A stretch of 64,000 bases of DNA from Sycon ciliatum. Its lineage: Eukaryota > Porifera > Calcarea > Leucosolenida > Sycettidae. Shown piece after piece: positions 2,460 through 60,338 of the stretch. The number at the start of each line of letters is the position of its first letter. Within the stretch, counting starts at the first letter, position 1. A model generated the notes under the pieces. The model was given only the letters and a program-made list of their open reading frames with translations, was not told the origin of the DNA and did no database searches. The stretch lies in assembly GCF_964019385.1 (NCBI RefSeq), contig NC_088655.1, positions 25,292,477 through 25,356,476 of the forward strand, written 5' to 3'. The translations under genes and the position numbers were made by a program.

Positions 2460-2490
<31 letters not shown>
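2460..2490. repeat. (ATT)n tract
   Basis: Microsatellite between the non-LTR fragment and the ribozyme palindrome. In unit 2 (about 16864-16891) a single tract occupies this place because the palindrome is absent. Confidence 0.9.
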
Positions 2491-2493
<3 letters not shown>

Positions 2494-2547
2494 CTCATAA
2501 AAAGGACACACTTCAGGCTCATTACAAACATCTTGAAAGTTTTTGTC

Positions 2548-2584
2548 TTCACAAGTATACTTTCAAGCCTTCTCATCAGGTGAA
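2548..2584 (-). ncRNA. Hammerhead ribozyme, type I-like, left arm (unit 1)
   Basis: Mirror copy of the motif at 3001-3037, with core and stems identical. Transcription through the palindrome from either side would produce one ribozyme in sense. Confidence 0.65.
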
Positions 2585-3000
2585 ATACAGGCAAGGGAAA
2601 AGGAACAGGAACAGTGGATGAAATACAGTAAGAAGGTGGTAAAACAGCGCAAAAAGAAAGAAAGAAAGAAAGAAGATAGCTAAAGTAAACAGCGAAAATT
2701 GCAATAATGACACAAAGGTGCAAATGCGAGAAAACTCAATAAGCGCGACATGTAGTGCGACAACAAGAGACAACCACTGGACCGTTAGTTACATGTATGT
2801 CCAGTGGTTGTCTCTTGTTGTCGCACTACATGTCGCGCTTATTGAGTTTTCTCGCATTTGCACCTTTGTGTCATTATTGCAATTTTCGCTGTTTACTTTA
2901 GCTATCTTCTTTCTTTCTTTCTTTCTTTCTTTTTGCGCTGTTTTACCACCTTCTTACTGTATTTAATCCACTGTTCCTGTTCCTTTTCCCTTGCCTGTAT

Positions 3001-3037
3001 TTCACCTGATGAGAAGGCTTGAAAGTATACTTGTGAA
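3001..3037 (+). ncRNA. Hammerhead ribozyme, type I-like, right arm (unit 1)
   Basis: Stem I is TTCAC (3001-3005) with GTGAA (3033-3037). The core CTGATGA is at 3006-3012, followed by a very short stem II in 3013-3020, GAAA at 3021-3024, and stem III formed by GT..AC around AT (3025-3030) with A15.1-U16.1. The predicted cleavage triplet is CUU, after 3032. All conserved core positions are present. The 2-bp stem II predicts weak activity or a need for dimerisation, as proposed for minimal retroelement hammerheads. Confidence 0.7.
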
Positions 3038-3517
3038 GACAAAAACTTTCAAGATGTTTGTAATGAGCCTGAAGTGTGTCCTTTTTATGAGTATTATCGC
3101 ATTTTTGTCTCAGAGGAAACTGTATTATTATTATTATTATTATTATTTTACAAGAAGTCGGAGGCGGATAATACTTTAGTAACGAAGGTACGTGTTGGGT
3201 CGTAAGTATCCACGCAAACACACATCCAGTCAAAATAAGGCACTTGTCTAAGTATCCGAACGTTTTCGGTCCCTTCTCATCAAGGATTATACAGGGAATG
3301 GCTCAAGTTGGAAAGACTAAAACTTATATAGCGTAAAGATATGAGATAACAACACTCGTGACAAGGTGGAAAAAGTATCAAGTTCAGTACGACACAAAAA
3401 CTCGAAGGAAATAATAATAGCGACAAGAACATAGTGAGCAAATTAAGTTACATTGTTAACACCTCGACGAGGAGTAACACCAAACAATTGTAGCGACAAC
3501 ACATTTTCTTTCTGTAC

Positions 3518-4672
3518 TCAAAGTTCAGGATCTAACTTACGGATATACATAGCTTCTAACACAGCCAGATGCAACGCACATCTACCACGTGACAATATTG
3601 AGAACACATTATCACTGTACAACTCACGACAATTGGTACGGGCTGACAGATGTTGCTTAATGGACGAAGTGCAATTCTTAGCTCCGTTGGGTGTAGTCTC
3701 CTCCAATGTCCCGTCATCTCGCCTCTTCGCGGCATCACCACTATCCGCCTCTTTGCTTTTCCGCGGCCTTCCACGTTTTCTGACACCAGCCGTTGTGTGC
3801 GCTATGCCCAGTGTCCTTTCAGCTACGTCTCCTCCATTGCGGATTTCTATTGATCTTCTTACTCCAACTTGTCCGGTGCTCGATATTGAGGTTCGTTTTC
3901 GCGGTCTACCACGTTTTCGAATATTGACTGTTGTTGTCACTTCCGTTGTCGTTGTACGTGCGTCCTCACCAGTCCGTATTTTTACTTGGCTTCGCGTAAC
4001 CCTTCCCGACGCAGACAGATCCTTTGTCAATTTCGGTGGTTTACGTGTCGGTCTTTCACCATCTTTCACGCTGTTCTCAGCTGGACCCTGCGCTATACAC
4101 GCGGAGGAGGACGGGCATGCAGTGATATCTTCACAGGAAGGGGAAGATCCACCGATGGACTGGACAGCACATTTTGGAGGACGATAACGGCGAGGACGAC
4201 ACTCACGCGCATCAAGCGGAACAAAACTTAACGGCACATGTTGACGAATGCGCACGCCCAGGGGCTGAAGGGTTCTACCTACATACCGATCTTCACATTG
4301 TCGGCATTGAAAGAAATAGATAAGGTTACTTTTACTAAGGGTAGGTAGAACATCCTTCTTCACACTGAACGCACGCACTGTCCCAAATATGACGTACAGC
4401 TTGACGCACGGATAAGATGGACATACGATACCACGAACATCCTTCTCCACGCGCGCAGAACCGGCGCCAACCCAGGGTAAACGGAGCACCACTGGGCAAA
4501 GGTCAGGTCCAAATTGGATCGGCTTGTCTGTCGCCGGTTTTTCGTTGATAAGCTTGGCCAGAAATTCCTTTGGATAGCCGTTGTTCGTAAATATTGACGT
4601 CAGTCTGTCTAATTCGTCCTGCAATAGATGAGGGGAACATATTCTATGCGCACGATAAACTAGCGCTTTCAC
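3518..4672 (-). pseudogene. PLE C-terminal RT plus AT-hook GIY-YIG endonuclease, truncated (unit 1)
   Basis: The 384-residue reading frame begins in the C-terminal part of a PLE reverse transcriptase and runs into a GIY-YIG endonuclease (NLIYFF, then RYVGRTLQ). The nuclease is interrupted by about 180 residues rich in Arg/Thr with AT-hook cores (KRGRPRK and related), then resumes with the helix carrying the likely catalytic Glu (LAVLEAMYI). GIY-YIG nucleases nick target DNA for PLE integration. Here a TGC to TGA change stops the frame 25 residues before the end seen in units 2 and 3. The palm of the RT is absent, so this copy is dead. One AT-hook-like site reads RRYRPPK rather than RRGRPPK. 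Confidence 0.75.
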
Positions 4673-4706
4673 AAGATGTTTCTTCGATTTCGTTGGAGTA
4701 TAGCGA

Positions 4707-5620
4707 AGGATGTTCTACCTACCCTAAGTAAAAGTAACCTTATCTATTTCTTTCAATGCCGACATTGTGAAGATCGGTATGTAGGTAGAACCCTTCAGCA
4801 CCTGGGCGCGCGCATTCGTCAACATGTGCCGTTAAGTTTTGTTCCGCTTGATGCGCGTGAGTGTCGTCCTCGCCGTGGTCGTCCTCCAAAATGTGCTGTC
4901 CAGTCCATCGGTGGATCTTCCTCTTCCTGTGAAGATATCACTGCATGCCCGTCCTCCTCCGCGTGTATAGCGCAGGGTCCAGCTGAGAACAGCGTGAAAG
5001 ATGGTGAAAGACCGACACGTAAACCACCGAAATTGACAAAGGATCTGTCTGCGTCGGGAAGGGTTACGCGAAGCCAAGTAAAAATACGGACTGGTGAGGA
5101 CGCACGTACAACGACAACGGAAGTGACAACAACAGTCAATATTCGAAAACGTGGTAGACCGCGAAAACGAACCTCAATATCGAGCACCGGACAAGTTGGA
5201 GTAAGAAGATCAATAGAAATCCGCAATGGAGGAGACGTAGCTGAAAGGACACTGGGCATAGCGCACACAACGGCTGGTGTCAGAAAACGTGGAAGGCCGC
5301 GGAAAAGCAAAGAGGCGGATAGTGGTGATGCCGCGAAGAGGCGAGATGACGGGACATTGGAGGAGACTACACCCAACGGAGCTAAGAATCGCACTTCGTC
5401 CATTAAGCAACATCTGTCAGCCCGTACCAATTGTCGTGAGTTGTACAGTGATAATGTGTTCTCAATATTGTCACGTGGTAGATGTGCGTTGCATCTGGCT
5501 GTGTTAGAAGCTTTGTATATCCGTAAGTTAGATCCTGAACTTTGCGTACAGAAAGAAAATGTGTTGTCGCTACAATTGTTTGGTGTTACTCCTCGTCGAG
5601 GTGTTAACAATGTAACTTAA
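4707..5620 (+). pseudogene. PLE GIY-YIG endonuclease with AT-hooks, right copy (unit 1)
   Basis: Open from the inverted junction to the native stop. An in-frame ATG at 4676 lies in the opposing copy, so the first ~10 codons are junction sequence. It encodes the complete GIY-YIG region with its insertion and three AT-hook-like cores, and ends GVTPRRGVNNVT. It lacks all RT sequence and can only be a nuclease fragment if expressed at all. Confidence 0.7.
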
Positions 5621-5770
5621 TTTGCTCACTATGTTCTTGTCGCTATTATTATTTCCTTCGAGTTTTTGTGTCGTGCTGAACTTGATACTTTTTCCACCTT
5701 GTCACGAGTGTTGTTATCTCATATCTTTACGCTATATAAGTTTTAGTCTTTCCAACTTGAGCCATTCCCT

Positions 5771-5812
5771 GTATAATCCTTGATGAGAAGGGACCGAAAA
5801 CGTTCGGATACT
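5771..5812 (+). ncRNA. Degenerate hammerhead-like motif in PLE 3' region (unit 1)
   Basis: TTGATGAGAAGGGACCGAAA aligns with the core of the motif at 3006-3024, but the first core base is T instead of C and the following CCGAAAACGTTCGG folds into its own hairpin. The mirror copy is at 3251-3292 on the minus strand. It may be a decayed or divergent hammerhead, or just a structured 3' recognition hairpin. Confidence 0.35.
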
Positions 5813-5910
5813 TTGACAAGTGCCTTATTTTGACTGGATGTGTGTTTGCGTGGATACTTACGACCCAACACGTACCTTCGTTACTAAATTATTATTATTA
5901 TTATTATTCA

Positions 5911-7276
5911 AAGGATCAGTCGGGGAAGTGAACTGCCTGAAAAGAGAAAAGAACGCCAGACCCACCAGGACTCGAACCTGGGACCCTGCTTGTCATGAGC
6001 AATGCTCTAACCACTGAGCTATGGGACCAGGCTGAACCTAGAAGGCGCTGACAAGTTTTTCACTCCAAAGGCAGCTCACAACACGTGCCACACATACTGA
6101 TGGCACTTGGGTCTTTTTCCCTCCCCCAGGGGACCAACCACGGTCAGTTTCTGGAAACTACCAGAGGTGAAAGAAAGTGATTAAATTTGGAAAGGATGGG
6201 AGAACTTCAAATTCAAAGGATCAGTCGGGGAAGTGAACTGCCTGAAAAGAGAAAAAAACGCCAGACCCACCAGGACTCGAACCTGGGACCCTGCTTGTCA
6301 TGAGCAATGCTCTAACCACTGAGCTATGGGACCAGGCTGAACCTAGAAGGCGCTGACAAGTTTTTCACTCCAAAGGCAGCTCACAACACGTGCCACACAT
6401 ACTGATGGCACTTGGGTCTTTTTCCCTCCCCCAGGGGACCAACCACGGTCAGTTTCTGGAAACTACCAGAGGTGAAAGAAAGTGATTAAATTTGGAAAGG
6501 ATGGGAGAACTTCAAATTCAAAGGATCAGTCGGGGAAGTGAACTGCCTGAAAAGAGAAAAAAACGCCAGACCCACCAGGACTCGAACCTGGGACCCTGCT
6601 TGTCATGAGCAATGCTCTAACCACTGAGCTATGGGACCAGGCTGAACCTAGAAGGCGCTGACAAGTTTTTCACTCCAAAGGCAGCTCACAACACGTGCCA
6701 CACATACTGATGGCACTTGGGTCTTTTTCCCTCCCCCAGGGGACCAACCACGGTCAGTTTCTGGAAACTACCAGAGGTGAAAGAAAGTGATTAAATTTGG
6801 AAAGGATGGGAGAACTTCAAATTCAAAGGATCAGTCGGGGAAGTGAACTGCCTGAAAAGAGAAAAAAACGCCAGACCCACCAGGACTCGAACCTGGGACC
6901 CTGCTTGTCATGAGCAATGCTCTAACCACTGAGCTATGGGACCAGGCTGAACCTAGAAGGCGCTGACAAGTTTTTCACTCCAAAGGCAGCTCACAACACG
7001 TGCCACACATACTGATGGCACTTGGGTCTTTTTCCCTCCCCCAGGGGACCAACCACGGTCAGTTTCTGGAAACTACCAGAGGTGAAAGAAAGTGATTAAA
7101 TTTGGAAAGGATGGGAGAACTTCAAATTCAAAGGATCAGTCGGGGAAGTGAACTGCCTGAAAAGAGAAAAAAACGCCAGACCCACCAGGACTCGAACCTG
7201 GGACCCTGCTTGTCATGAGCAATGCTCTAACCACTGAGCTATGGGACCAGGCTGAACCTAGAAGGCGCTGACAAGT
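5911..7276 (-). repeat. SINE-1 tandem array, 305-bp units (unit 1)
   Basis: Four complete 305-bp units start at 5911, 6216, 6521 and 6826, and a fifth partial unit starts at 7131. Each holds a 71-nt tRNA-like head on the minus strand (5958-6028, 6263-6333, 6568-6638, 6873-6943, 7178-7248) with a perfect T stem and good A and B boxes. The anticodon loop CATGACA lacks U33, so these are SINE heads, not working tRNA genes. Near-identity points to tandem expansion, not repeated insertion. Confidence 0.8.
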
Positions 7277-7283
7277 TTTCTAC

Positions 7284-7457
7284 TTGTCAGCGCCTTCTAG
7301 GTTCAGCCTGGTCCCATAGCTCAGTGGTTAGAGCATTGCTCATGACAAGCAGGGTCCCAGGTTCGAGTCTTGGTGGGTCTGGCGTTTTTTTCTCTTTTCA
7401 GGCAGTTCACTTCCCCGAATGATCCTTTGAATTTGAAGTTCTCCCATCCTTTCCAAA
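7284..7457 (+). mobile_element. SINE-1 copy in inverted orientation (unit 1)
   Basis: Inverted copy closing the array. Its tRNA-like head is at 7310-7380 and it ends in (ATT)n. The array/inverted-copy junction is a short hairpin around ACAAGTTTTCTACTTGT. Confidence 0.8.
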
Positions 7458-16863: not shown

Positions 16864-17186
16864 CATTATTATTATTATTATTATTATTATTTTACAAGAA
16901 GTCGGAGGCGGATAATACTTTAGTAACGAAGGTACGTGTTGGGTCGTAAGTATCCACGCAAACACACATCCAGTCAAAATAAGGCACTTGTCAAAGTATC
17001 CGAACGTTTTCGGTCCCTTCTCATCAAGGATTATACAGGGAATGGCTCAAGTTGGAAAGACTAAAACTTATATAGCGTAAAGATATGAGATAACAACACT
17101 CGTGACAAGGTGGAAAAAGTATCAAGTTCAGTACGACACAAAAACTCGAAGGAAATAATAATAGCGACAAGAACATAGTGAGCAAA

Positions 17187-19364: not shown

Positions 19365-19654
19365 TTTGCTCACTATGTTCTTGTCGCTATTATTATTTCC
19401 TTCGAGTTTTTGTGTCGTGCTGAACTTGATACTTTTTCCACCTTGTCACGAGTGTTGTTATCTCATATCTTTACGCTATATAAGTTTTAGTCTTTCCAAC
19501 TTGAGCCATTCCCTGTATAATCCTTGATGAGAAGGGACCGAAAACGTTCGGATACTTTGACAAGTGCCTTATTTTGACTGGATGTGTGTTTGCGTGGATA
19601 CTTACGACCCAACACGTACCTTCGTTACTAAATTATTATTATTATTATTATTCA

Positions 19655-20715
19655 AAGGATCAGTCGGGGAAGTGAACTGCCTGAAAAGAGAAAAGAACGC
19701 CAGACCCACCAGGACTCGAACCTGGGACCCTGCTTGTCATGAGCAATGCTCTAACCACTGAGCTATGGGACCAGGCTGAACCTAGAAGGCGCTGACAAGT
19801 TTTTCACTCCAAAGGCAGCTCACAACACGTGCCACACATACTGATGGCACTTGGGTCTTTTTCCCTCCCCCAGGGGACCAACCACGGTCAGTTTCTGGAA
19901 ACTACCAGAGGTGAAAGAAAGTGATTAAATTTGGAAAGGATGGGAGAACTTCAAATTCAAAGGATCAGTCGGGGAAGTGAACTGCCTGAAAAGAGAAAAA
20001 AACGCCAGACCCACCAGGACTCGAACCTGGGACCCTGCTTGTCATGAGCAATGCTCTAACCACTGAGCTATGGGACCAGGCTGAACCTAGAAGGCGCTGA
20101 CAAGTTTTTCACTCCAAAGGCAGCTCACAACACGTGCCACACATACTGATGGCACTTGGGTCTTTTTCCCTCCCCCAGGGGACCAACCACGGTCAGTTTC
20201 TGGAAACTACCAGAGGTGAAAGAAAGTGATTAAATTTGGAAAGGATGGGAGAACTTCAAATTCAAAGGATCAGTCGGGGAAGTGAACTGCCTGAAAAGAG
20301 AAAAAAACGCCAGACCCACCAGGACTCGAACCTGGGACCCTGCTTGTCATGAGCAATGCTCTAACCACTGAGCTATGGGACCAGGCTGAACCTAGAAGGC
20401 GCTGACAAGTTTTTCACTCCAAAGGCAGCTCACAACACGTGCCACACATACTGATGGCACTTGGGTCTTTTTCCCTCCCCCAGGGGACCAACCACGGTCA
20501 GTTTCTGGAAACTACCAGAGGTGAAAGAAAGTGATTAAATTTGGAAAGGATGGGAGAACTTCAAATTCAAAGGATCAGTCGGGGAAGTGAACTGCCTGAA
20601 AAGAGAAAAAACGCCAGACCCACCAGGACTCGAACCTGGGACCCTGCTTGTCATGAGCAATGCTCTAACCACTGAGCTATGGGACCAGGCTGAACCTAGA
20701 AGGCGCTGACAAGTT
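19655..20715 (-). repeat. SINE-1 tandem array (unit 2)
   Basis: One 305-bp unit fewer than units 1 and 3. tRNA-like heads are at 19702-19772, 20007-20077, 20312-20382 and 20616-20686. Confidence 0.8.
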
Positions 20716-20721
20716 TTCTAC

Positions 20722-20895
20722 TTGTCAGCGCCTTCTAGGTTCAGCCTGGTCCCATAGCTCAGTGGTTAGAGCATTGCTCATGACAAGCAGGGTCCCAGGT
20801 TCGAGTCCTGGTGGGTCTGGCGTTTTTTTCTCTTTTCAGGCAGTTCACTTCCCCGACTGATCCTTTGAATTTGAAGTTCTCCCATCCTTTCCAAA
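20722..20895 (+). mobile_element. SINE-1 inverted copy (unit 2)
   Basis: tRNA-like head at 20748-20818 with a perfect T stem (CCAGG/CCTGG), unlike the copies in units 1 and 3, which have one T-stem change. Confidence 0.8.
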
Positions 20896-20921
20896 TTATT
20901 ATTATTATTATTATTATTATT

Positions 20922-26027: not shown

Positions 26028-26214
26028 AAGGCCACAGCTTCCAATCATGACATGCAAAGCAGCGGTGCAGCATCGCAGGCATGAATCGTGGACGTGGTGA
26101 CGGGGTCTGATGTGCTCCACCGACCTAGGGTCTCGGCTTCACTGCACAGCAAACGCGTCGAAAGAAAACGGGGGCTAATAATTATCGGGAGATGGGGGGG
26201 GGGGAGAAGAAGAG

Positions 26215-26946
<732 letters not shown>

Positions 26947-27112
26947 GAGCTGGGAGATAGAAGAGCACAGTGCTCTTGGTGATGGGGGCTGCGAAGGATA
27001 GCAGGTTCTGGGATATGTGCATGAGAATCAGAATATTGGTGATGATGGCAGCAGGGTTATAAGGTAAGCAGCTGAACACTCATAAGAACAGGGAAAGCGT
27101 TGGCGAGCAGAT

Positions 27113-30034
27113 TCAAAGTGCATCAGTAGCAGAGAGCCAGTCCTGAGCAAGAAGGTGACGGTACACCTTTTTCTTAAAGCTTTGCATGTGGGGCTGGGCG
27201 GGTGGGTGGTGGAACAGGTCTGGTGGCAGGGCATTCCATGTTGCAACGGTGCAAGCAGGGAATCCTTGGAGACAGCTATTCCGGGTGTTGGCAGGCAGGC
27301 CAGTTGTCATCTGGTATGGATGGGAATCCTGCAGCTGGAGAGACTGACGGGTAGGTCTTGTCTCGGGGGCACGGTGAGTGGCTGGTTTAGGCAGCATCTG
27401 CTTCAGAGGGCTGGACGCATCTAGATAGCAGAGCTTGTAGGTATAGGCAAGTGCAGCTACCAGGCGACGGAGTGCCAGGCTAGGGAGCCAGGTACCTGCT
27501 CCGATGATGTGGAGGGCCCTTCGCTGGATCTGGTCCAGCTTCTTAAGATGGGACGAGGGTGAGCCCATCCACACTAAGGGGCAATACTCGAGTGTGGGTC
27601 GCACAAAGCCGTTGTAGACGCGTTGGCGGCTCTCGGCGTCCAGAATGGGAGACGCTCGCTTCAGGAAGCCAATCCGCTGGTTAGCACGGGAAGCTAGGGA
27701 GCGGAGGTGGAAGGAGTAGCTCAGGGTGTCGTCAAAGGTGACTCCCAGGAGTTTCAGCCGACTCTCTTCACTGACCGGTGTGCCGTCAAATGTTGCTCGA
27801 GGGAGCTCCCAGGGCTGGCGATGGTGGCCTATAGACATAGCCTGCGTCTTGGAGGGCTCAAATTTGATCCTCCACTTATGTCCCCAACGGGAAAACGCAT
27901 CAATGCCCTGCTGGAGGAGCTCGGAGCCACAGTCAATGTCAGCTCTTGATGTGAGGCAGTGGAAGAGAGTGGTGTCGTCAGCGTAGGCTGCTAGCTCCAT
28001 ACCTGGTGGGAGGTGGTCCTCGCCATCATTGGTGTAGAGGATGAACAGGGTGGGACCAAGGATACTGCCCTGCGGCACGCCAGCTTTGGTCGGGTACGGA
28101 CTGGAAAGTTCACCTCCAACTGCAACCCTCAAGTGACGATCAGTCAGGTAATCCCTCAGCCAAGCGAGAAGTGGACCAGTTACACCATAGCATTGTGCCT
28201 TGTGCAAAACGCCTACATGAGAGACGCGGTCGAATGCGCCAGCCACATCAACTGCAATGACTCGAACCACACCACCTCTGGCTGCAACGCGACTCCATTG
28301 GTAGTTGAGTAGCGTGAGTATGTCCTGGGTGCCGAGTTGGCTGCGGAAGCCATACTGACTTTTCGATAGGATGTTGTGTGCCTCCAGGAACTGTCGGATT
28401 GAGTGGTTAATAATGGCCTCCATGACTTTCGACAGAATAGAGAGGAGGGAGATCGGGCGGTAGTTCTTAACATCAGACTTGGATTTTTTCTTGTGCACCG
28501 GCACAACCATTGCCGTCTTCCACATTGTAGGTTGCCGACCTTGGTGGAAGGCCTGCGAAAAGAGCCGCGACACGGGTGCAGCCAGCTCTTTGCTGCATTG
28601 CCGGAGTACACGCCCGGGGATGCCGTCTGGACCCGTGGCTTTGGCGGGGTGGAGTTGCCTCAGCTTCCGCTCAACCGTGTTTGGCCGAAAGTGGACATTG
28701 CGGAGTTGAGCTTGAGATCGGGGGCGGACTGGAGGGAGGCTGTTGGCTTGCAAGTCGTTGTCACCAAGACTGCACTTTGCGGAGAAATACTGCCCGAATG
28801 CTTCGGCCTTTTCGCTGCAGGTGGTGTGCTCAGTTCCGTTCGACGCACGCAGAACAGGTATGTCTGCAGAGCGGTGTCCTTGCCCACCTGCTCGCTTGAC
28901 GGTTGTCCACCATTGTCGGCTGGAAAGGGCACCTTCTCTTATCTTTCGGCGGATACTGGTAGTGTGCGCTTGCTTGGCTCTGTGCAGACAGTTTGTTGCT
29001 TCACCTGTTGCCATAGAGTAGGCCAGCCGCAGGTGTGCATTGTTGGGCGAAGATCGGTGACGTCGCCAGGCCCGTTGCTTCCTGTCAACAGCTTCCTGGC
29101 ACTCAGGTGACCACCAGGCTGGGTCTCCCTGGCGTAGCTTCAGGGTTTTGGATGGAATGAACATCTGCATGCCCTCTTTGATCTTCTGTGTGAGTTTCAC
29201 ACAAGATACGTCAATGCTGTTGTCATCAGTCAACACCCAGTTTGTGGACCGAAAGAAAGCCCGTAGCCGAGGCCAGTCAGCATGCTGGTAGCGCCACACG
29301 GTTCGCTTACTGGGACGGTCACAGGAGGGGGCAACTTCAAAGTCAGTTATCACAATTGCGTGGTCAGATTTCCCTAGAGGTGGATGGAGAGTTGAGATGA
29401 CGCTTCCAGGGATATCTGACATTATGAGGTCGAGGATATTATTGCCACGTGTTGGCTCATGGACATGCTGATCGAGGCAATGGTGGTAACACAGATCTTC
29501 AGCAGCTTCACCAGCAGGGGAAGTTCTACTGCTGCCTAGCCATTCCCGGTTGTGAACATTTAGGTCACCTGCAACGATGATATTCTGGCAGCATTGCCTA
29601 GCATCATCTATGCCAGAGCTGATGCTGTTTAGGGCAGAGATGTCCCCATCAGCGGATGAACCTGAGCGATACACAGCACATACTCCAATGGATGGGCCAG
29701 CTGCTGTCTTGAGGCGAACCCACAGGATTTCATTTCCACCAGTATCAATACATTCTAGTTCTGTGAAAGCCAGGTCGGCCCGAATCCAGATAGCAACACC
29801 GCCCCCCTGGGCCGTACGGTCCCTTCGAACTGGTGGGAAGTATCCAGGGAATGTGAGGTCAGCAGGCGTGGCCTTGTCCTCCGTGACTTTTGTCTCCGTG
29901 ACGATGACAATGTCAGGGTGGTGGGCATTGAGAGAAGCTTGGAACTCCCCAAGTTTTGACAAGATACCGAAAGCATTTGTCAGCATGAGGCGGAGCATTC
30001 TAGGTGGTTGCCGTGCACGTGTTGGAGCCATCAT
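27113..30034 (-). CDS. LINE ORF2: APE endonuclease and reverse transcriptase
   Basis: 973 residues without interruption. Residues ~1-230 are an APE-type endonuclease (TETKV with the catalytic Glu, GDLNVHNREW, and LGKSDHAIV near its end). The RT follows with ATGPDGIPG, NYRPISLLSILSKVMEAII, VDVAGAFDRVSH carrying the first catalytic Asp, AGVPQGSILGPTLF and the YADD box (AAYADDTTLF). The C-terminal region has the LGVTFD and EYCPLVW motifs usual in this group. Endonuclease and RT together perform target-primed reverse transcription. Domain order and motifs fit the CR1/Jockey group. No ORF1 was found upstream, so a separate ORF1 may have been lost or may not exist. Potentially active. Confidence 0.9.
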   Translation of the reverse strand: MMAPTRARQPPRMLRLMLTNAFGILSKLGEFQASLNAHHPDIVIVTETKVTEDKATPADLTFPGYFPPVRRDRTAQGGGVAIWIRADLAFTELECIDTGGNEILWVRLKTAAGPSIGVCAVYRSGSSADGDISALNSISSGIDDARQCCQNIIVAGDLNVHNREWLGSSRTSPAGEAAEDLCYHHCLDQHVHEPTRGNNILDLIMSDIPGSVISTLHPPLGKSDHAIVITDFEVAPSCDRPSKRTVWRYQHADWPRLRAFFRSTNWVLTDDNSIDVSCVKLTQKIKEGMQMFIPSKTLKLRQGDPAWWSPECQEAVDRKQRAWRRHRSSPNNAHLRLAYSMATGEATNCLHRAKQAHTTSIRRKIREGALSSRQWWTTVKRAGGQGHRSADIPVLRASNGTEHTTCSEKAEAFGQYFSAKCSLGDNDLQANSLPPVRPRSQAQLRNVHFRPNTVERKLRQLHPAKATGPDGIPGRVLRQCSKELAAPVSRLFSQAFHQGRQPTMWKTAMVVPVHKKKSKSDVKNYRPISLLSILSKVMEAIINHSIRQFLEAHNILSKSQYGFRSQLGTQDILTLLNYQWSRVAARGGVVRVIAVDVAGAFDRVSHVGVLHKAQCYGVTGPLLAWLRDYLTDRHLRVAVGGELSSPYPTKAGVPQGSILGPTLFILYTNDGEDHLPPGMELAAYADDTTLFHCLTSRADIDCGSELLQQGIDAFSRWGHKWRIKFEPSKTQAMSIGHHRQPWELPRATFDGTPVSEESRLKLLGVTFDDTLSYSFHLRSLASRANQRIGFLKRASPILDAESRQRVYNGFVRPTLEYCPLVWMGSPSSHLKKLDQIQRRALHIIGAGTWLPSLALRRLVAALAYTYKLCYLDASSPLKQMLPKPATHRAPETRPTRQSLQLQDSHPYQMTTGLPANTRNSCLQGFPACTVATWNALPPDLFHHPPAQPHMQSFKKKVYRHLLAQDWLSATDAL

Positions 30035-30172
30035 TGTGAGGATTGGTTATCCTGCCGGGGTGGCTGCGCACCAGGCTGGGCAGAACGCTTCGCATCGTGC
30101 GACAGCGAATCAGGTGACCGCTCGGCAGAAGAACGTTTGTGGCTGCAGAAGAACGTTTGTGGCATGCATGCT

Positions 30173-34464: not shown

Positions 34465-34545
34465 ATTATTATTATTATTATTATTATTATACTCATAAAA
34501 AGGACACACTTCAGGCTCATTACAAACATCTTGAAAGTTTTTGTC

Positions 34546-34582
34546 TTCACAAGTATACTTTCAAGCCTTCTCATCAGGTGAA
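34546..34582 (-). ncRNA. Hammerhead ribozyme, left arm (unit 3)
   Basis: Mirror of the right-arm motif; the core TCATCAG (plus strand) is intact. Confidence 0.65.
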
Positions 34583-34998
34583 ATACAGGCAAGGGAAAAG
34601 GAACAGGAACAGTGGATTAAATACAGTCAGAAGGTGGTAAAACAGCGCAAAAAGAAAGAAAGAAAGAAAGAAGATAGCTAAAGTAAACAGCGAAAATTGC
34701 AATAATGACACAAAGGTGCAAATGCGAGAAAACTCAATAAGCGCGACATGTAGTGCGACAACAAGAGACAACCACTGGACCGTTAGTTACATGTATGTCC
34801 AGTGGTTGTCTCTTGTTGTCGCACTACATGTCGCGCTTATTGAGTTTTCTCGCATTTGCACCTTTGTGTCATTATTGCAATTTTCGCTGTTTACTTTAGC
34901 TATCTTCTTTCTTTCTTTCTTTCTTTCTTTTTGCGCTGTTTTACCACCTTCTTACTGTATTTAATCCACTGTTCCTGTTCCTTTTCCCTTGCCTGTAT

Positions 34999-35035
34999 TT
35001 CACCTGATGAGAAGGCTTGAAAGTATACTTGTGAA
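34999..35035 (+). ncRNA. Hammerhead ribozyme, right arm (unit 3)
   Basis: All core and stem bases identical to 3001-3037; predicted cleavage after 35030. Confidence 0.7.
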
Positions 35036-35443
35036 GACAAAAACTTTCAAGATGTTTGTAATGAGCCTGAAGTGTGTCCTTTTTATGAGTATTATCGCAT
35101 TTTTGTCTCAGAGGAAACTGTATTATTATTATTATTATTATTATTATTTTACAAGAAGTCGGAGGCGGATAATACTTTAGTAACGAACGTACGTGTTGGG
35201 TCGTAAGTATCCACGCAAACACACATCCAGTCAAAATAAGGCACTTGTCAAAGTATCCGAACGTTTTCGGTCCCTTCTCATCAAGGATTATACAGGGAAT
35301 GGCTCAAGTTGGAAAGACTAAAACTTATATAGCGTAAAGATATGAGATAACAACACTCGTGACAAGGTGGAAAAAGTATCAAGTTCAGTACGACACAAAA
35401 ACTCGAAGGAAATAATAATAGCGACAAGAACATAGTGAGCAAA

Positions 35444-37620: not shown

Positions 37621-37910
37621 TTTGCTCACTATGTTCTTGTCGCTATTATTATTTCCTTCGAGTTTTTGTGTCGTGCTGAACTTGATACTTTTTCCACCTT
37701 GTCACGAGTGTTGTTATCTCATATCTTTACGCTATATAAGTTTTAGTCTTTCCAACTTGAGCCATTCCCTGTATAATCCTTGATGAGAAGGGACCGAAAA
37801 CGTTCGGATACTTTGACAAGTGCCTTATTTTGACTGGATGTGTGTTTGCGTGGATACTTACGACCCAACACGTACCTTCGTTACTAAATTATTATTATTA
37901 TTATTATTCA

Positions 37911-39276
37911 AAGGATCAGTCGGGGAAGTGAACTGCCTGAAAAGAGAAAAGAACGCCAGACCCACCAGGACTCGAACCTGGGACCCTGCTTGTCATGAGC
38001 AATGCTCTAACCACTGAGCTATGGGACCAGGCTGAACCTAGAAGGCGCTGACAAGTTTTTCACTCCAAAGGCAGCTCACAACACGTGCCACACATACTGA
38101 TGGCACTTGGGTCTTTTTCCCTCCCCCAGGGGACCAACCACGGTCAGTTTCTGGAAACTACCAGAGGTGAAAGAAAGTGATTAAATTTGGAAAGGATGGG
38201 AGAACTTCAAATTCAAAGGATCAGTCGGGGAAGTGAACTGCCTGAAAAGAGAAAAAAACGCCAGACCCACCAGGACTCGAACCTGGGACCCTGCTTGTCA
38301 TGAGCAATGCTCTAACCACTGAGCTATGGGACCAGGCTGAACCTAGAAGGCGCTGACAAGTTTTTCACTCCAAAGGCAGCTCACAACACGTGCCACACAT
38401 ACTGATGGCACTTGGGTCTTTTTCCCTCCCCCAGGGGACCAACTACGGTCAGTTTCTGGAAACTACCAGAGGTGAAAGAAAGTGATTAAATTTGGAAAGG
38501 ATGGGAGAACTTCAAATTCAAAGGATCAGTCGGGGAAGTGAACTGCCTGAAAAGAGAAAAAAACGCCAGACCCACCAGGACTCGAACCTGGGACCCTGCT
38601 TGTCATGAGCAATGCTCTAACCACTGAGCTATGGGACCAGGCTGAACCTAGAAGGCGCTGACAAGTTTTTCACTCCAAAGGCAGCTCACAACACGTGCCA
38701 CACATACTGATGGCACTTGGGTCTTTTTCCCTCCCCCAGGGGACCAACCACGGTCAGTTTCTGGAAACTACCAGAGGTGAAAGAAAGTGATTAAATTTGG
38801 AAAGGATGGGAGAACTTCAAATTCAAAGGATCAGTCGGGGAAGTGAACTGCCTGAAAAGAGAAAAAAACGCCAGACCCACCAGGACTCGAACCTGGGACC
38901 CTGCTTGTCATGAGCAATGCTCTAACCACTGAGCTATGGGACCAGGCTGAACCTAGAAGGCGCTGACAAGTTTTTCACTCCAAAGGCAGCTCACAACACG
39001 TGCCACACATACTGATGGCACTTGGGTCTTTTTCCCTCCCCCAGGGGACCAACCACGGTCAGTTTCTGGAAACTACCAGAGGTGAAAGAAAGTGATTAAA
39101 TTTGGAAAGGATGGGAGAACTTCAAATTCAAAGGATCAGTCGGGGAAGTGAACTGCCTGAAAAGAGAAAAAAACGCCAGACCCACCAGGACTCGAACCTG
39201 GGACCCTGCTTGTCATGAGCAATGCTCTAACCACTGAGCTATGGGACCAGGCTGAACCTAGAAGGCGCTGACAAGT
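37911..39276 (-). repeat. SINE-1 tandem array (unit 3)
   Basis: Same count as unit 1. tRNA-like heads are at 37958-38028, 38263-38333, 38568-38638, 38873-38943 and 39178-39248. Confidence 0.8.
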
Positions 39277-39283
39277 TTTCTAC

Positions 39284-39457
39284 TTGTCAGCGCCTTCTAG
39301 GTTCAGTTGGGTCCCATAGCTCAGTGGTTAGAGCATTGCTCATGACAAGCAGGGTCCCAGGTTCGAGTCTTGGTGGGTCTGGCGTTTTTTTCTCTTTTCA
39401 GGCAGTTCACTTCCCCGACTGATCCTTTGAATTTGAAGTTCTCCCATCCTTTCCAAA
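39284..39457 (+). mobile_element. SINE-1 inverted copy (unit 3)
   Basis: tRNA-like head at 39310-39380; followed by a shorter ATT tract than in units 1 and 2. Confidence 0.8.
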
Positions 39458-39474
39458 TTATTATTATTATTATT

Positions 39475-42943: not shown

Positions 42944-44045
42944 GTACACTCAGATGTCTCTTATCCGGGCACCTTGGGACCGGGCACTGCCCGTATCTCA
43001 GATTTGCCCGTATCTCAGATTTGCCCGTATCTCAGATTTGCCCGTATCTCAGATTTGCCCGTATCTCAGATTTGCCCGTATCTCAGATTTGCCCGTATCT
43101 CAGATTTGCCCGTATCTCAGATTTGCCCGTATCTCAGATTTGCCTGTATCTCAGATTTGCCCGTATCTCAGGATAACTCATCTACCATGTACTTTATCAT
43201 AATAATAATTATTATGTGGAAGAGAAAAAGACATATGGATACGAGTTAAGAGTAACTCTCCATCACTGTAACATGATACTATATACAGTCAGAAAGTGCA
43301 ATAACTAGGCACAAAACTGACAGAGTACTGAAACATTCGACGTCCTGACACCTAGCTTCAACACATCTCCGTAGCGCTAACCGACAGCCTTCCAACTTGG
43401 AAGGTTCAAGGTTATGGAAAAGACCAAAGAGGGGAAGGCAAGCGCAACGAAAACGAGCAAAAGCTACAGTCCCAACGGAACAAAGAATGTCGATTGTTAC
43501 TGGACGATGACGAGACCAGTACGATATTTGACAAAGCGGTCTAACTACAATTCGAAGCAGCAAAGCAGCACACCACCCAACTTGGGTGTCGGTTAGCGCT
43601 ACGGAGATGTGTTGAAGCTAGGTGTCAGGACGTCGAATGTTTCAGTACTCTGTCAGTTTTGTGCCTAGTTATTGCACTTTCTGACTGTATATAGTATCAT
43701 GTTACAGTGATGGAGAGTTACTCTTAACTCGTATCCATATGTCTTTTTCTCTTCCACATTTATTTATGGCTCAACATCCGAGTTTCAAATAATTATTATT
43801 ATTATCATTTTTTAAAGAAATTTATTTGGCAGGCATTGCACATGTTCAGGTTACAGGAAGAATCCATTGATAAAAATGGGTGGATTTCACAGGTTGGTAG
43901 TGACAAAAAAAGCACTTGCGCATACGAAAAAAGTTCAAATCCCCCAAATTCCAAGCTTTTTTGCCATAGGAACTCGAGCTGAAGGTGCCCGGTAGAGAGA
44001 CGTGCCCGTATCTGAGGCGTCCGGATAAGAGACATTCGGGTGTAC
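42944..44045. mobile_element. TIR element with minisatellite, interrupted (unit 3)
   Basis: Copy of 10953-11470 with a 573-bp F1 element inserted into its AAT/ATT tract. The minisatellite is at 42990-43171. Confidence 0.6.
43216..43788. mobile_element. F1 foldback element, long form (unit 3 only)
   Basis: Inverted arms of ~190 bp enclose ~190 bp of unrelated sequence, and the right end has an extra tail ending GAGTTTCAA. The arms and tail match the 204-bp F1 element at 1647-1850. An 11-bp target duplication, ATAATTATTAT, is at 43205-43215 and 43789-43799, and the empty site is seen in units 1 and 2. No long ORF. Confidence 0.8.
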
Positions 44046-51918: not shown

Positions 51919-51920
<2 letters not shown>

Positions 51921-52771
51921 TAGTGAAGATTTTATGACTTGGGGCTCCCCGCGTGCTAGAGTGTACGTGAAGTGTGTGGGTACAGTGAGGGCTGCGTCCC
52001 ACCCGCCTGTGTGGATTCAAAGGAAGTGTGAGTTATGAAGTCTGAAGAAAATGTTGAACAGTCTCTGCTGGGATGACGACTACACCATAGCTCAGTGGTT
52101 AGAGCATCGCTGGCTACAAGCGAGGGTCCCTGGTTCGAGTCCTGGTGGTGACAGTCAATTTTTTTCTTCAGACTTTTCCCGTTTGTCTCTTTCCCTCAAA
52201 CTAGTGAAGATTTTATGACTTGGGGCTCCCCGCGTGCTAGAGTGTACGTGAAGTGTGTGGGTACAGTGAGGGCTGCGTCCCACCCGCCTGTGTGGATTCA
52301 AAGGAAGTGTGAGTTATGAAGTCTGAAGAAAATGTTGAACAGTCTCTGCTGGGATGACGACTACACCATAGCTCAGTGGTTAGAGCATCGCTGGCTACAA
52401 GCGAGGGTCCCTGGTTCGAGTCCTGGTGGTGACAGTCAATTTTTTTCTTCAGACTTTTCCCGTTTGTCTCTTTCCCTCAAACTAGTGAAGATTTTATGAC
52501 TTGGGGCTCCCCGCGTGCTAGAGTGTACGTGAAGTGTGTGGGTACAGTGAGGGCTGCGTCCCACCCGCCTGTGTGGATTCAAAGGAAGTGTGAGTTATGA
52601 AGTCTGAAGAAAATGTTGAACAGTCTCTGCTGGGATGACGACTACACCATAGCTCAGTGGTTAGAGCATTGCTGGCAACAAGCGAGGGTCCCTGGTTCGA
52701 GTCCTGGTGGTGACAGTCAATTTTTTTCTTCAGACTTTTCCCGTTTGTCTCTTTCCCTCAAACTAGTGAAG
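51919..52771 (+). repeat. SINE-2 tandem array, 281-bp units
   Basis: Units start at 51919, 52200 and 52481, followed by a stub at 52762 that runs into (TTA)n. Each has a tRNA-like head (about 52076-52153 in the first) with A box TAGCTCAGTGG and B box GGTTCGAGTCC; the T stem has one mismatch. Another SINE family than SINE-1, though both heads share the D-arm sequence. Confidence 0.75.
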
Positions 52772-52797
52772 ATTATTATTATTATTATTATTATTAT

Positions 52798-53287: not shown

Positions 53288-53309
53288 TATTATTATTATT
53301 ATTATTATT

Positions 53310-53750
53310 CAAATGATCAGTCGGGGAAGTGAACTGCCTGAAAAGAGAAAAAAACGCCAGACCCACCAGGACACGAACCTGGGACACTGCTTGTCATGAG
53401 CAATGCTCTAACCACTGAGCTATGGGACCAGGCTGAACCTAGAAGGCGCTGACAAGTTTTTCACTCCAAAGGCAGCTCACAACACGTGCCACACATACTG
53501 ATGGCACTTGGGTCTTTTTCCCTCCCCCAGGGGACCAACCACGGTCAGTTTCTGGAAACTACCAGAGGTGAAAGAAAGTGATTAAATTTGGAAAGGATTG
53601 GGAGAACTTCAAATTCAAATGATCAGTCGGGGAAGTGAACTGCCTGAAAAGAGAAAAAAAACGCCAGACCCACCATGTTTTTTTTCTCTTTTCAGGCAGT
53701 TCACTTCCCCGACTGATCATTTGAATTTGAAGTTCTCCCAATCCTTTCCA
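53310..53750. mobile_element. SINE-1 copy and inverted partial copy
   Basis: One minus-strand SINE-1 (tRNA-like head at 53359-53429) followed by a partial unit that meets its own inverted copy. The arms of ~76 bp lie on either side of about 53670-53678. It ends in an ATT tract. Confidence 0.75.
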
Positions 53751-53775
53751 AATTATTATTATTATTATTATTATA

Positions 53776-53992
53776 CAGTGTAATAATAATAATAACTAGT
53801 GAAAATTCTTCGTCTCCGTCTCGTCTCCGTCTCCGTCGCCATCGGGACGTGGAGAGTCGACGCCAGGAGGGTCGCTGCCCTCCTCGGGACGTGGAGAGTC
53901 GACGCCAGAGGGGTCTCTGCCCTCCTCGGGGGTGTCCTCCCCGTCGGCGCTGGCTGCGGCGACACGAGCACGATAATAATAATATTATAGCT
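53776..53992 (+). other. GC-rich leader with 43-bp direct repeat
   Basis: Two copies of a 43-bp block containing GGACGTGGAGAGTCGACGCC (about 53842 and 53885), flanked by AAT runs. It lies just upstream of the next ORF and may be its 5' UTR or promoter; this is a guess from position. Confidence 0.4.
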
Positions 53993-56900
53993 ATGCCGCC
54001 ATGCTGCACGTGCGGAAAGGCCTCGACCTGTTCAGGCTGTAAATGCGCCAAAGCTGGACGTCAATGTACTAACTGCTCCGCCAATCGCCATGGAACGTGT
54101 CGTAACTCCTGTTGCTTAGCGTCGTCACAGACAGCCGGCAGCGCTGCTGCCGCCTCTCATCTGGCTTTCTCTTCATCGTGCCCAGTACCCTCCGCCGTTA
54201 ATACTCGAAATTCAAGAACTCGAAATTCGAATGTTCAAGGAGTATCTCAAATATCGGCCTCCTCTTCCTGCCACGATGGTCGCGGAAACCCTTCTACCAC
54301 GTCCTCACAACCCAGCGGTGCTGCCGCGGAGACGTCTGTTTCATCCTCATGCCCCGCTGCGGCTTCTGGCTCAGGCACTCAAACTCCCCAGGTTCGAAAC
54401 TCCCAAGAGAATTCTCAGCCGCCTTCCGGTACGCACAGCACTGGGGATGCGCACGCCCTGGACTACTCTGCCATTTCATCCCAGGACATTGACCTGCTTG
54501 CGAACTTGGACGCCTCTCAGCCACCTGAGCGACTCCCCGACGCTGCACCAGCCCTAAACTGCCAGCCGTTCACCTGGGCTTCCGTCCCATCATCGCAGTT
54601 TGAGCAAGCCCTGGAGCACGCGAGAGAAGTTGTCGTCAACTGGCGCCGCAACATTTTTGCAATACCATCTGGAAAAGCAGGCTGTGCGTTCGTGGAGGAG
54701 CAGGCTCGTCTCCTGCAACTCCTGTCCCTGACACACCTCAGGAACGCATTGCTCTGAAAGCTGCTATGGTGTTTCCGCCGCTTCTCCTGCAGAAACCTTT
54801 CCGGACATCAAAGGCTGCTGATCATGTCCGCTGCTTGCAGCGTCGACTCCAACTATGGAAAGATGGTGATATCACTTCCCTGCTCCACGAGGGTCGGCAG
54901 ATCCAAGACCAACTACCATCTGGTCCTCTCCAGCGGTCTGATGACGCAGCGGTGAAAGGCTTTACCCGTCTCATGCTCACGGGCAAAGTGAAAGCAGCAA
55001 TTCGTTGCCTGCACACCTCAGGCAAGGGGGGCGTCCTTCCCTTGCAGGCTGACTGCGGTGGTGGCCAGTCCACCATAGATATTCTGAAAGCCAAACACCC
55101 ATCACCGGACTTGGATGGCCCTCATCCGATGTACTGCTACAGGGTCCGTGCCGCCCAACGCATCCCGTGCTGTTCGAACCGGTGAATGCTGCATTTGTCC
55201 GGGCTACCTCTCTTTCCCTGTCTGGTGCGGCAGGGGAGTCTGGGCTGGATGCAGATGCCTGGCGGAGGATGTGTTGTTCATTTGGAAGATCTTCCACGGG
55301 CATATGCAACGCTGTAGCAATGCTGACGAAGCGCCTCGCCACCTCTCCTGTCGACTCGGGTGCTTTGGCGCCGCTGCTGGCTGGAAGGCTTGTGCCCCTG
55401 GATAAGAATCCTGGTGTGCGCCCGATCGGCATTGGGGAGACCCTCCGTCACCTCATTGCCAAGGTGGTCCTCCGCATCACGCGTCAGGACATTGTTGAGG
55501 CCGCGGGGGCACTTCAAACCTGTGCTGGGCAGGAGGGTGGGGCGGAGGCCGCTGCACATGCCCTGTGTCGCCACTTTGACAGCAGCAACACAGAGGGAGC
55601 ACTCCTGGTCGATGCTACCAACGCGTTCAACTCCCTGAACCGTGCAGCTATGCTCCACAACATCCACCTACTATGTCCATCAATAGCAACAATTTCGAAA
55701 AACTTTTACCGCAGCACAGTACCTCTCCACGTCAGCGGTACGGTCATCTGGTCTGCTGAAGGCACCACGCAAGGCTGCCCACTAGCCATGCCCCTCTACG
55801 CTATTGCCATTACGCCACTTGTCACTAATCTCGCCACCGCTGCCAAGACTTGGCTGGTTGTCAAGCCCGAGCATCTCGATGCTGCCAACGCTGCATTCGC
55901 CGACACCGATGTCCACATCACCACTGAGGGCCGCCCCTACCTGGGTGCTCCTCTGGGCTCGGAAGCCTTCAAGACAACATTTTGCAATGCTCGAGTGGAG
56001 GCTTGGGCATCTGAGATGCGTGAGCTGGCGAACGTGGCCGAGGCCGAGCCCCAAGCCGTGTATGCCGCACTGGTCTTTGGGTACCGTCACCGCTGGACAT
56101 TCCTGATGCGCGTGTCGAGCTGTGCACCAGACGTCTTCGAGCCTCTCGAGTCCTCTCTTCGCTCCGTCTTGTTTCCAGCTCTATTGGGTGTGCCAGTCGT
56201 CCCTGCCAATCTACGCAACCTTCTTGCTCTGCCTGTGCGTCATTGTGGCCTTGCAGTGCTCAATCCAGTTGAGGCTACCCCGCAACAGCGGACAGCATCA
56301 CGATCAGTCTCCAGCAACTTATCGCGGACCAGTCCTCCCTCTACAGCGTAGACCCAGCAGCCATTTGCGCCGCCAAGGCTGCTGCCAAGCAAGCCCAGTC
56401 TGTGACTACCAAGACCGTCCTGCAGACAGCTGGCCCAGAGGCCCTACCACCAATGGTTCTGGAGCACCTCGAGGCCAAGGGAACAGGTGCATGGCTGACC
56501 TGTCTTCCTGTTCGCGAGCATGGATACTCCCTCGACCGGCGGTCCTTCGTTGATGCCCTATGCATTCGGTATGGCCTCACCATCCACGGTTCACCTACCG
56601 AGTGTCCATGCGGCCGGCCGTTCACCATCGACCACGCAATGATCTGCAAGTTGGGCGGCTATCCCATCCACCGGCACAACCATGTCCGTAACTACCTGAG
56701 CCAACTTCTTTCTCAAGTGTCTGAGGATGTGCAGCTGGAGCCACCGCTGCAACCTCTACCGACGGTCCGCACGTTTGACCATGGTCCTGCCCTGCTCACT
56801 GCGGACGACGCCGGACCGGACATCAAGGCCAGGGGTTTTTGGTCGGTACAGACTGATGCATTTTTTGATGTAAGGGTGTTCTATCCCAACGCACAGTCGT

Positions 56901-57259
56901 ACCGATCTCGCCCGCTGGCTGAGGTGTTCCAATGGCACGAGCGTCAGAAGCAGTCGGCATACGGTGCCCGGATCCGGGAAGTTGATCACGCGTCGTTCAC
57001 CCCGATCGTCCTGTCTTCTGCTGGTGCCCTGGCGAAGGAGGCCACCCGGTTCCTGAAGCTGCTCGGAACGAAGCTCTCCACCAAGCTCTCGCAGCCTTAT
57101 CCCCTCGTGATGGGAAAGCTGCGGACGGACCTGGCTTTCAGCCTTGTCCGCGACTCCGTCCTGATGGTTCGTGGGAGTCGCCGTGCATTCCGTGCACCTG
57201 GTCTGGCGGCGGATGTGGATGCTGTTTCTGTGGAGGCCCGCATTCCCGCCACTACGTGA
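53993..57259 (+). pseudogene. REL-type non-LTR element ORF, frameshifted and RT-deleted
   Basis: Starts MPPCCTCGKASTC with a Cys-rich N terminus, then a Ser/Ala-rich linker to a stop at 54757. The same protein continues in other frames (about 54750-55130, 55150-56340, 56350-57259), so at least three frameshifts are present. The RT part has VRPIGIGETLRHLI, LLVDATNAFNSLN (catalytic Asp) and EGTTQGCPLAMPLYAIA. It then passes from NLATAA straight to KTWLVVKPEHL, where a YADD box is expected, so an internal deletion seems to have removed the active site. The C terminus has a zinc-finger-like CPCGRPFTIDHAMICK and a nuclease-like DAFFDVRVFYPNA. The element cannot be active. Its 3' end was the source of, or shares origin with, the fragments in units 1-3. 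Confidence 0.75.
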
Positions 57260-60302: not shown

Positions 60303-60332
60303 AAAAAAAAAAAATATATATATATATATATA
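60303..60332. repeat. A-run and (TA)n tract
   Basis: Follows the non-LTR 3' end and forms the border with PLE family 2. Here a TA microsatellite takes the place of the usual ATT tract. Confidence 0.85.
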
Positions 60333-60338
60333 CTCAAT

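What the first reader, a model, noticed from the sequence alone, without database searches (positions are those of the whole stretch)
2491..3120. Palindromic, ORF-less element with a hammerhead in each arm
The arms (291 and 295 bp) each carry a complete hammerhead core with short stems, oriented outward. Any read-through transcript would contain one ribozyme, and the RNA could fold into a long hairpin. It is flanked by (ATT)n, present in units 1 and 3 and absent in unit 2. It resembles the idea of small non-autonomous ribozyme retroelements, but the inverted-dimer form is unusual and I do not know a named family.
Basis: partly seen in the sequence, partly recalled or inferred. Interest (0 to 1): 0.88.

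Follow-up and report, generated by a model that had tools for sequence, protein, structure and literature searches.

The report
Inverted pair of Penelope retrotransposon ends
The palindrome is two shortened copies of a young Penelope-type jumping gene joined head to head, each carrying that gene's usual small ribozyme motif; the type is known, but the many copies in this genome give a clue to how such mirror-image insertions are made.

Summary
In detail: window 2491-3122 is a near-perfect palindrome with one hammerhead-like core per arm, facing outward, present in units 1 and 3 and absent in unit 2. It is not an unnamed ribozyme element. The same genome holds its parent: L016 has a 963-codon open frame (weak but ordered matches to reverse transcriptase, then GIY-YIG endonuclease) that holds the ATG inside CUGAUGA and continues exactly as the palindrome's 3' end reads. 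The palindrome is two 5'-truncated 3' ends of a Penelope-like element (PLE), joined head to head. The exact 39-nt hammerhead occurs 435 times in the genome; of 30 neighbouring pairs among the 100 places listed, 28 are head to head and none direct. In 27 of 29 inverted pairs with both ends visible, one end carries a ~28-nt 'tail' and the other lacks it; 19 of 20 such pairs outside (ATT)n share 9-14-nt target repeats. Best explanation: two-sided target-primed reverse transcription from two start sites. Inverted pseudo-LTRs, tail and hammerhead are published PLE features; the near-strict one-tail rule argues against the published self-priming idea. The motif varies 3-4 times less than its immediate flanks (twice less than the tail); cleavage is untested.

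The parts
2461..2490 (.). (ATT)n target microsatellite, left copy
   Evidence: empty-site counterpart 16865-16891 in unit 2
2491..2782 (-). Left arm: 5'-truncated PLE 3' end in inverted orientation, tail-less outer end
2547..2585 (-). Hammerhead-like motif, left arm (core 2553-2579)
2783..2798 (.). 16-nt centre; belongs to the longer (right) arm, the arms abut with no filler
   Evidence: same event read at L009: arms meet at 1792/1793
2799..3094 (+). Right arm: pseudo-LTR, hammerhead and start of the PLE reading frame
3000..3038 (+). Hammerhead-like motif, right arm: stem I 3000-3005/3033-3038, CUGAUGA 3006-3012, helix II 3013-3020, GAA 3021-3023, helix III 3024-3031, U17 at 3032 (predicted cleavage after it)
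3009..3122 (+). First 38 codons of the PLE reading frame (MRRLESILVKTKTFKM...SQRKL)
   Evidence: continues into the 963-codon frame in L016
3095..3122 (+). 28-nt 'tail', present at this outer end only
3123..3146 (.). (ATT)n, right copy of the target
34489..35120 (.). Same insertion in unit 3 (2 differences over 635 nt)
16865..16891 (.). Empty site in unit 2
3148..5887 (.). Neighbouring inverted pair of a second PLE family (endonuclease-encoding arms), tail on the left end
   Evidence: weak GIY-YIG match E=0.15

Best explanation
The palindrome is one integration event of a Penelope/Poseidon-type PLE. Shown: both arms are 3' ends of the same young family; both 3' ends face outward; the outer ends differ by the ~28-nt tail; the arms meet in the middle with no filler; the whole lies between two (ATT)n stretches where unit 2 has one (a target duplication can be measured only in sister insertions outside microsatellites). 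Inferred: the PLE protein cuts both strands of an AT-rich or (ATT)n target, and each cut 3' end primes reverse transcription of an element RNA inside the start of its reading frame, one at the upstream (tail-less) start site and the other at the downstream (tail) site. Both cDNAs stop early and their inner ends are joined, often at 1-6 shared letters, giving a head-to-head dimer. The hammerhead comes along because it overlaps the ORF start, just upstream of the RT start sites. In the dimer it is probably silent, since a transcript across it would fold into a ~290-bp hairpin. Confidence by step: PLE identity ~0.97; two-sided priming ~0.7; the figure below is for the whole.
For: Parent element: L016, 963 codons open stop to stop; RVT_1 E=1e-4 and GIY-YIG E=0.027 in the order RT then EN, both below Pfam's cut-offs; 42% identity to the endonuclease frames of the PLE next door. 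The ATG lies in CUGAUGA; U17 is 24 nt, tail-less end 86 nt and tail end 114 nt from that A. PMC11167929 (main text read) reports for the Anolis PLE: HHR cut site 26 bp past the start codon, RT start 111-118 bp into the ORF, two RT start sites bounding the tail, cleavage and extension on both strands, 5'-ATT-3' preferred. One tailed and one tail-less end in 27 of 29 pairs (binomial against p=0.5 8e-7). Shared target strings of 9-14 nt, microhomology included, in 19 of the 20 rule-obeying pairs outside (ATT)n; in the other (L039) a local repeat confounds the search; no shuffle control was run. Arms meet with -1 to +6 nt overlap in 23 of 26 pairs. Arm lengths not significantly correlated (P=0.14). 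Of 30 neighbouring exact cores within 10 kb among the 100 listed, 28 head to head, 2 tail to tail (both in one complex locus), 0 same strand.
Against: Two of 29 pairs break the rule: L025 (both ends tail-less, no target repeat, interrupted by another element) and L041 (both tailed, with the flank itself in inverted copies). The Anolis assay saw no strand difference in start site, so why the ends differ is unexplained. Variants shared between insertions are mixed: the arms agree in L031 (3 sites), L019 and L020 and disagree in L027, L010 and the window copy; two further disagreeing columns (852, 853) sit at the tail-less junction and were not weighed. So two separate RNA templates are not proven. 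Arm-arm divergence (0.0030, 15 pairs) equals that between insertions (0.0032), which a single master source would give under either model. Three of the 20 first-fetch loci look like single-copy insertions (L015, L018, L024, read by eye). L016 and L025 hold partial direct tandems. The GIY-YIG and RT matches are sub-threshold and no RT tree was built.
Confidence: 0.75

Rival explanations
1. Same element, different route: self-priming. An element RNA (antisense, as proposed for rotifer Penelope) or a cDNA folds back and copies itself, giving a head-to-head hairpin that is then integrated.
For: Proposed in PMC3846280 from palindromes at inverted junctions (passages read). Five of 26 pairs have arms within 32 nt of each other in length; 18 of 26 junctions show 1-6 nt overlap; the two arms share variants in L031, L019 and L020.
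Against: A copied arm should end where its template ends, so both outer ends should match; they differ by the tail in 27 of 29 pairs. Arms disagree at variants shared with other insertions in L027, L010 and the window copy.
Confidence: 0.2
2. A small non-autonomous hammerhead retroelement (metazoan retrozyme) that moves through circular RNA.
For: Type I-like hammerhead, short arms, high copy number (435 exact cores).
Against: Same sequence is the end of a 3.07-kb element with an open frame; 0 same-strand neighbours within 10 kb among the 100 listed cores, and the direct tandems seen in L016 and L025 have full-element spacing. [quoted passage not shown]
Confidence: 0.03
3. Assembly or amplification artefact (fold-back chimera).
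For: Palindromes are a known artefact class (recalled).
Against: Many independent loci, unequal arms, one-sided tail, target repeats and an empty site in a paralogous unit. L041, whose flank is also inverted, could be one such case.
Confidence: 0.01
4. Fold-back DNA transposon (MITE with TTA-type target duplication).
For: Palindromic, flanked by (ATT)n.
Against: Target repeats of 9-14 nt with microhomology rather than 3, variable 5' truncation, parent with an RT-like frame.
Confidence: 0.01

Closest known systems
Penelope/Poseidon PLE of Anolis carolinensis (PAc), PMC11167929 (main text read)
   Same: RT-GIY-YIG frame, hammerhead overlapping the ORF start, RT start 111-118 nt into the ORF (here tail end at 114), tail between two start sites, AT/ATT targets.
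   Different: PAc is described in tandem arrays; here head-to-head inverted pairs predominate among loci read. PAc ribozyme cleavage was shown (only with protein added); here untested.
Penelope elements of the rotifer Adineta vaga (e.g. Pen2a_Av), PMC3846280 (passages read)
   Same: Inverted pseudo-LTRs, 31-bp tail optionally on one of them, 8-10-bp target duplications, pseudo-LTR includes the first 12 codons (22 with tail), head-to-head arrangement.
   Different: The word hammerhead does not occur in its main text. The tail is called optional there; here exactly one end carries it in 27 of 29 pairs.
Minimal hammerheads of PLEs (reviewed in PMC6155905; passages read)
   Same: Full catalytic core with reduced helix III inside the pseudo-LTR.
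   Different: Here helix III is 2 bp and its 8-mer AGUAUACU is self-complementary, so a two-molecule form is conceivable (inference).
Metazoan retrozymes, PMC7229834 (abstract and one section read)
   Same: Type I hammerhead in a short repeated element.
   Different: Retrozymes are reported as non-autonomous short direct tandems; here inverted pairs of an element with an open frame.

Membership tests
Penelope-like element | Single frame with RT followed by GIY-YIG endonuclease | tested here: met
   L016 963-codon frame; RVT_1 (E=1e-4) and GIY-YIG (E=0.027) in that order, both below curated cut-offs, so met on weak scores
Penelope-like element | Telomerase-related RT phylogeny | not tested
   No tree built
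Penelope-like element | Pseudo-LTRs, direct or inverted | tested here: met
   L016 has a direct repeat of period 3070 plus an inverted partial copy; 17 of 20 first-fetch loci are inverted pairs
Penelope-like element | ~30-nt tail on one end | tested here: met
   27 of 29 pairs
Penelope-like element | Short target duplications, AT-rich targets | tested here: met
   19 of the 20 rule-obeying pairs outside (ATT)n; none in L025; 7 of the 27 rule-obeying pairs lie in (ATT)n; AT-richness judged by eye
Penelope-like element | Hammerhead at the ORF start | tested here: met
Hammerhead ribozyme | Catalytic core CUGANGA...GAAA...UH closed by three helices | tested here: met
   helices II and III are only 2 bp
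Hammerhead ribozyme | Match to an Rfam hammerhead model | tested here: not met
   none at E<=10
Hammerhead ribozyme | Conservation beyond the surrounding sequence | tested here: met
   26/1022 mismatches in the motif against 89/1072 (5' flank), 160/1496 (3' flank) and 25/481 (tail) in 27 of 28 diverged copies read; gap cells dropped; L061 left out because most of its motif is deleted. Copies are not independent and the motif is partly coding
Hammerhead ribozyme | Self-cleavage | not testable with these tools
   Minimum-energy folds did not show the hammerhead
Retrozyme | Short direct tandem copies | tested here: not met
   0 same-strand neighbours within 10 kb among the 100 listed of 435 cores; L016 and L025 have direct copies only at full-element spacing
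Retrozyme | Non-autonomous, no coding capacity in the family | tested here: not met
   open 963-codon frame in L016
Retrozyme | Circular RNA | not testable with these tools
   no expression data

The most novel reading that the evidence does not exclude
PLE integration is an obligately asymmetric two-ended reaction: a dimeric RNP cuts both target strands and the two reverse transcriptases start at two different fixed sites ~28 nt apart, so each insertion gets exactly one tail. The same reaction moves unrelated passengers in this genome (tRNA-containing tandem arrays, the 43214-43785 element), which show the same one-sided ~27-32-nt extension. The standard insertion product would then be a head-to-head dimer, not a single copy.
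Probability: 0.5. Interest if true: 0.68.

Novelty: new member of a known kind. Interest (0 to 1): 0.45.

Why it matters
How PLEs integrate is an open question: one 2024 in vitro study shows internal initiation at two sites and extension of both strands, while an earlier structural study proposed self-priming. A very young PLE family with hundreds of near-identical copies in one assembled genome, where one tail per insertion can be counted, makes the choice between two-sided priming and self-priming testable. It also gives a warning: ribozyme-bearing palindromes in animal genomes can be ordinary truncated PLE pairs rather than a new ribozyme element class.

Tried and rejected
Rfam scans gave no hammerhead for the focal motif. 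Viral-contig scans with a 20-nt core piece and with the second family's endonuclease frame found no relative. Pfam at E<=0.001 gave nothing for the two PLE-like frames of the window; a laxer run gave weak RT and GIY-YIG matches for L016, a weak GIY-YIG for 3521-4714 and nothing for 61031-62494. A sequence search of solved structures gave only two weak RT matches (E~0.009) and unrelated ones. Arm-versus-arm polymorphism was meant to separate the two integration models and came out mixed. Retrozyme, MITE and artefact readings were put aside for the reasons under rivals. No structure prediction or RT tree was run. The species was not identified; 'animal' is inferred. Five more (L037-L041) came, also because a partner was visible, so the second set favours compact pairs. 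One search's length test uses 26 pairs (L016, L025, L041 left out). One search covers 20 pairs outside (ATT)n (L025 and L041 left out). One search leaves out L061. One search lists only the first 100 of 435 places, so speaks for those (C1 and part of C2).

Full report
What is there. The window is eukaryotic, probably animal, DNA with several paralogous units spaced ~14-18 kb apart. In unit 1 a palindrome occupies 2491-3094 (arms 292 and 296 nt, 16-nt centre), followed on the right by a 28-nt extension and (ATT)n. Unit 3 has the same insertion at 34489-35120 with 2 differences over 635 nt. A further copy of the insertion lies about 24 kb upstream of unit 1's (L009). Unit 2 has only (ATT)9 at the site.

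The hammerhead. Each arm has all fixed core letters, a 6-bp stem I, a 2-bp helix II and a 2-bp helix III with loop UAUA, then U17. With thresholds set with the motif in view, 3 of 200 whole-window shuffles and 0 of 2000 local ones gave any hit. Rfam does not see it, although a like scan does see another hammerhead at 60322-60396, 32.6 bits, below its gathering score. Minimum-energy folding does not show the hammerhead shape. The exact 39-nt motif occurs 435 times in the 538-Mb genome, with 0 for the reversed-pattern control; in the 20 first-fetch loci 37 of 39 copies found at up to 6 mismatches are exact. In 27 of 28 diverged copies read (L061, with most of the motif deleted, left out) the motif differs from the focal sequence at 26 of 1022 cells, against 89 of 1072 in the 5' flank, 160 of 1496 in the 3' flank and 25 of 481 in the tail region. 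GAAA never varies (0 of 108); of the CUGANGA segment the free position N7 varies most (3 of 27, against 3 of 162 for the other six). The copies are related and the motif is also coding, so this supports but does not prove selection for a ribozyme.

What the palindrome belongs to. Searching the genome with one arm gave 54 matches (40 of 1353 candidates scored), 42 of them over at least 292 of its 300 letters at 99-100% identity by the tool's rounding. One locus, L016, holds a 3.07-kb unit in partial direct tandem plus an inverted fragment with a 963-codon open frame. That frame holds the ATG within CUGAUGA and reads MRRLESILVKTKTFKM..., which is exactly what the palindrome's right end encodes. 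It carries RT and GIY-YIG matches in that order, both below Pfam's cut-offs, and is 42% identical to the endonuclease frames of a second PLE next door in the window. The palindrome is therefore two 5'-truncated 3' ends of a Penelope-like element. Positions match the studied Anolis PLE: predicted cut 24 nt and RT starts 86 and 114 nt from the ATG here, against 26 bp and 111-118 bp there (PMC11167929, main text read).

The ends. I fetched 20 loci in the order of the match list. Seventeen are inverted pairs (L009 is the window's own event in a further copy) and three (L015, L018, L024) look like single copies, read by eye. Thirteen further short loci were chosen because partner hits were visible; L040's left end fell outside the stretch. 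Of the 29 pairs with both ends visible, 27 have one tailed end (position 321-332 of the reference by exact matching in the 20 pairs; up to 336 by looser matching) and one tail-less end (293-306 by exact matching; ~285 in L027, 309 for L034 by looser matching). The exceptions are L025 (two tail-less ends, no target repeat, interrupted by another element) and L041 (two tailed ends, flanks in inverted copies). Shared target strings of 9-14 nt, microhomology included, flank 19 of the 20 rule-obeying pairs outside (ATT)n; in the twentieth (L039) the program picked a local repeat; no shuffle control was run. Seven of the 27 lie in (ATT)n, so (ATT)n is a frequent target, not part of the element. Arms meet with -1 to +6 nt overlap in 23 of 26 pairs; L017, L030 and L032 have filler. 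Arm lengths are not significantly correlated (P=0.14). Among the 100 listed exact cores, 30 neighbours lie within 10 kb: 28 head to head, 2 tail to tail in one complex locus, none on the same strand; random placement gives 0.7 neighbours.

Other families in the window follow the same pattern. The PLE pair at 3148-5887 (tail left), the element at 1647-1852, the unit-3-only insertion at 43215-43785 (flanked by TAATTATTAT, absent from units 1 and 2) and the tRNA-containing arrays at 5909-7456 and 53309-53751 each show one end extended by about 27-40 nt, measured by eye on the printed ends.

Mechanism. Best supported is two-sided target-primed reverse transcription from two start sites, followed by joining of the inner cDNA ends. 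The Anolis enzyme cuts and extends both strands and has two start sites. Self-priming on an antisense template, proposed for rotifer Penelope (PMC3846280, passages read), predicts identical outer ends, contrary to 27 of 29. Not settled: whether two RNAs are used (arms share variants in L031, L019, L020 and differ in L027, L010 and the window copy; columns 852-853 at the tail-less junction not weighed), and why the ends are nearly always unlike.

Known or new. Inverted pseudo-LTRs, tail, target duplications and minimal hammerheads are published PLE features. New here are the family, its youth (arm divergence 0.30% over 15 pairs), and the counted one-tail rule. I found no statement of that rule in what I saw of the papers opened (PMC11167929 main text; PMC7229834 abstract and one section; passages of PMC3846280, PMC6155905 and PMC12910113) or in the listings of the searches. 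Most subscription papers on Penelope are not held, so it may be in print elsewhere.

Noticed in passing
60322-60396, minus strand: Canonical hammerhead (Rfam Hammerhead_HH9, 32.6 bits, E 8e-7, below its gathering score of 52) on the 3' side of the frame 61028-62494, which I take for another PLE by eye (no Pfam match at E<=10); that copy is itself one half of an inverted pair running past the window end (61639-62439 / 63200-64000).
   Followed up: partly
5906-7456, 19650-20897, 37906-39459, 53307-53754: Arrays of a ~305-bp unit with an Rfam tRNA match (anticodon region CAT read by eye), ending in an inverted unit and (ATT)n; the two arrays whose ends were compared (5906 and 53307) show the same one-sided ~27-28-nt extension as the PLE pairs; possibly PLE-mobilised tRNA passengers.
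   Followed up: partly
51919-52779: Direct tandem of a 281-bp unit with Rfam tRNA matches between (TTA)n and (ATT)n, no inverted unit seen.
   Followed up: no
43214-43785: Insertion present in unit 3 and absent from units 1 and 2, inverted pair with one-sided ~32-nt extension and a TAATTATTAT duplication; same family as 1647-1852.
   Followed up: yes
1881-2393 and 53717-57587: 3' end and longer copy of an RT-like element (RVT_1 E=0.0014, below cut-off), followed by (ATT)n in unit 1; several element classes here end in or sit in (ATT)n.
   Followed up: no
26211-26949: About 740 bp of (AG)n next to a frame with RT and endonuclease/exonuclease/phosphatase domains at 27113-30046.
   Followed up: no
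L021 5237-5266: The last 15 nt of the tail occur twice in direct order at the outer end, as if reverse transcription slipped or restarted.
   Followed up: no
L041 and L017: L041: PLE pair whose flanks are also inverted copies; L017: 1,091 nt between the arms, including a 127-nt element piece.
   Followed up: no
L025 3080-5077: The PLE copy is interrupted by a stretch with a 596-aa open frame that looks RT-encoding by eye.
   Followed up: no
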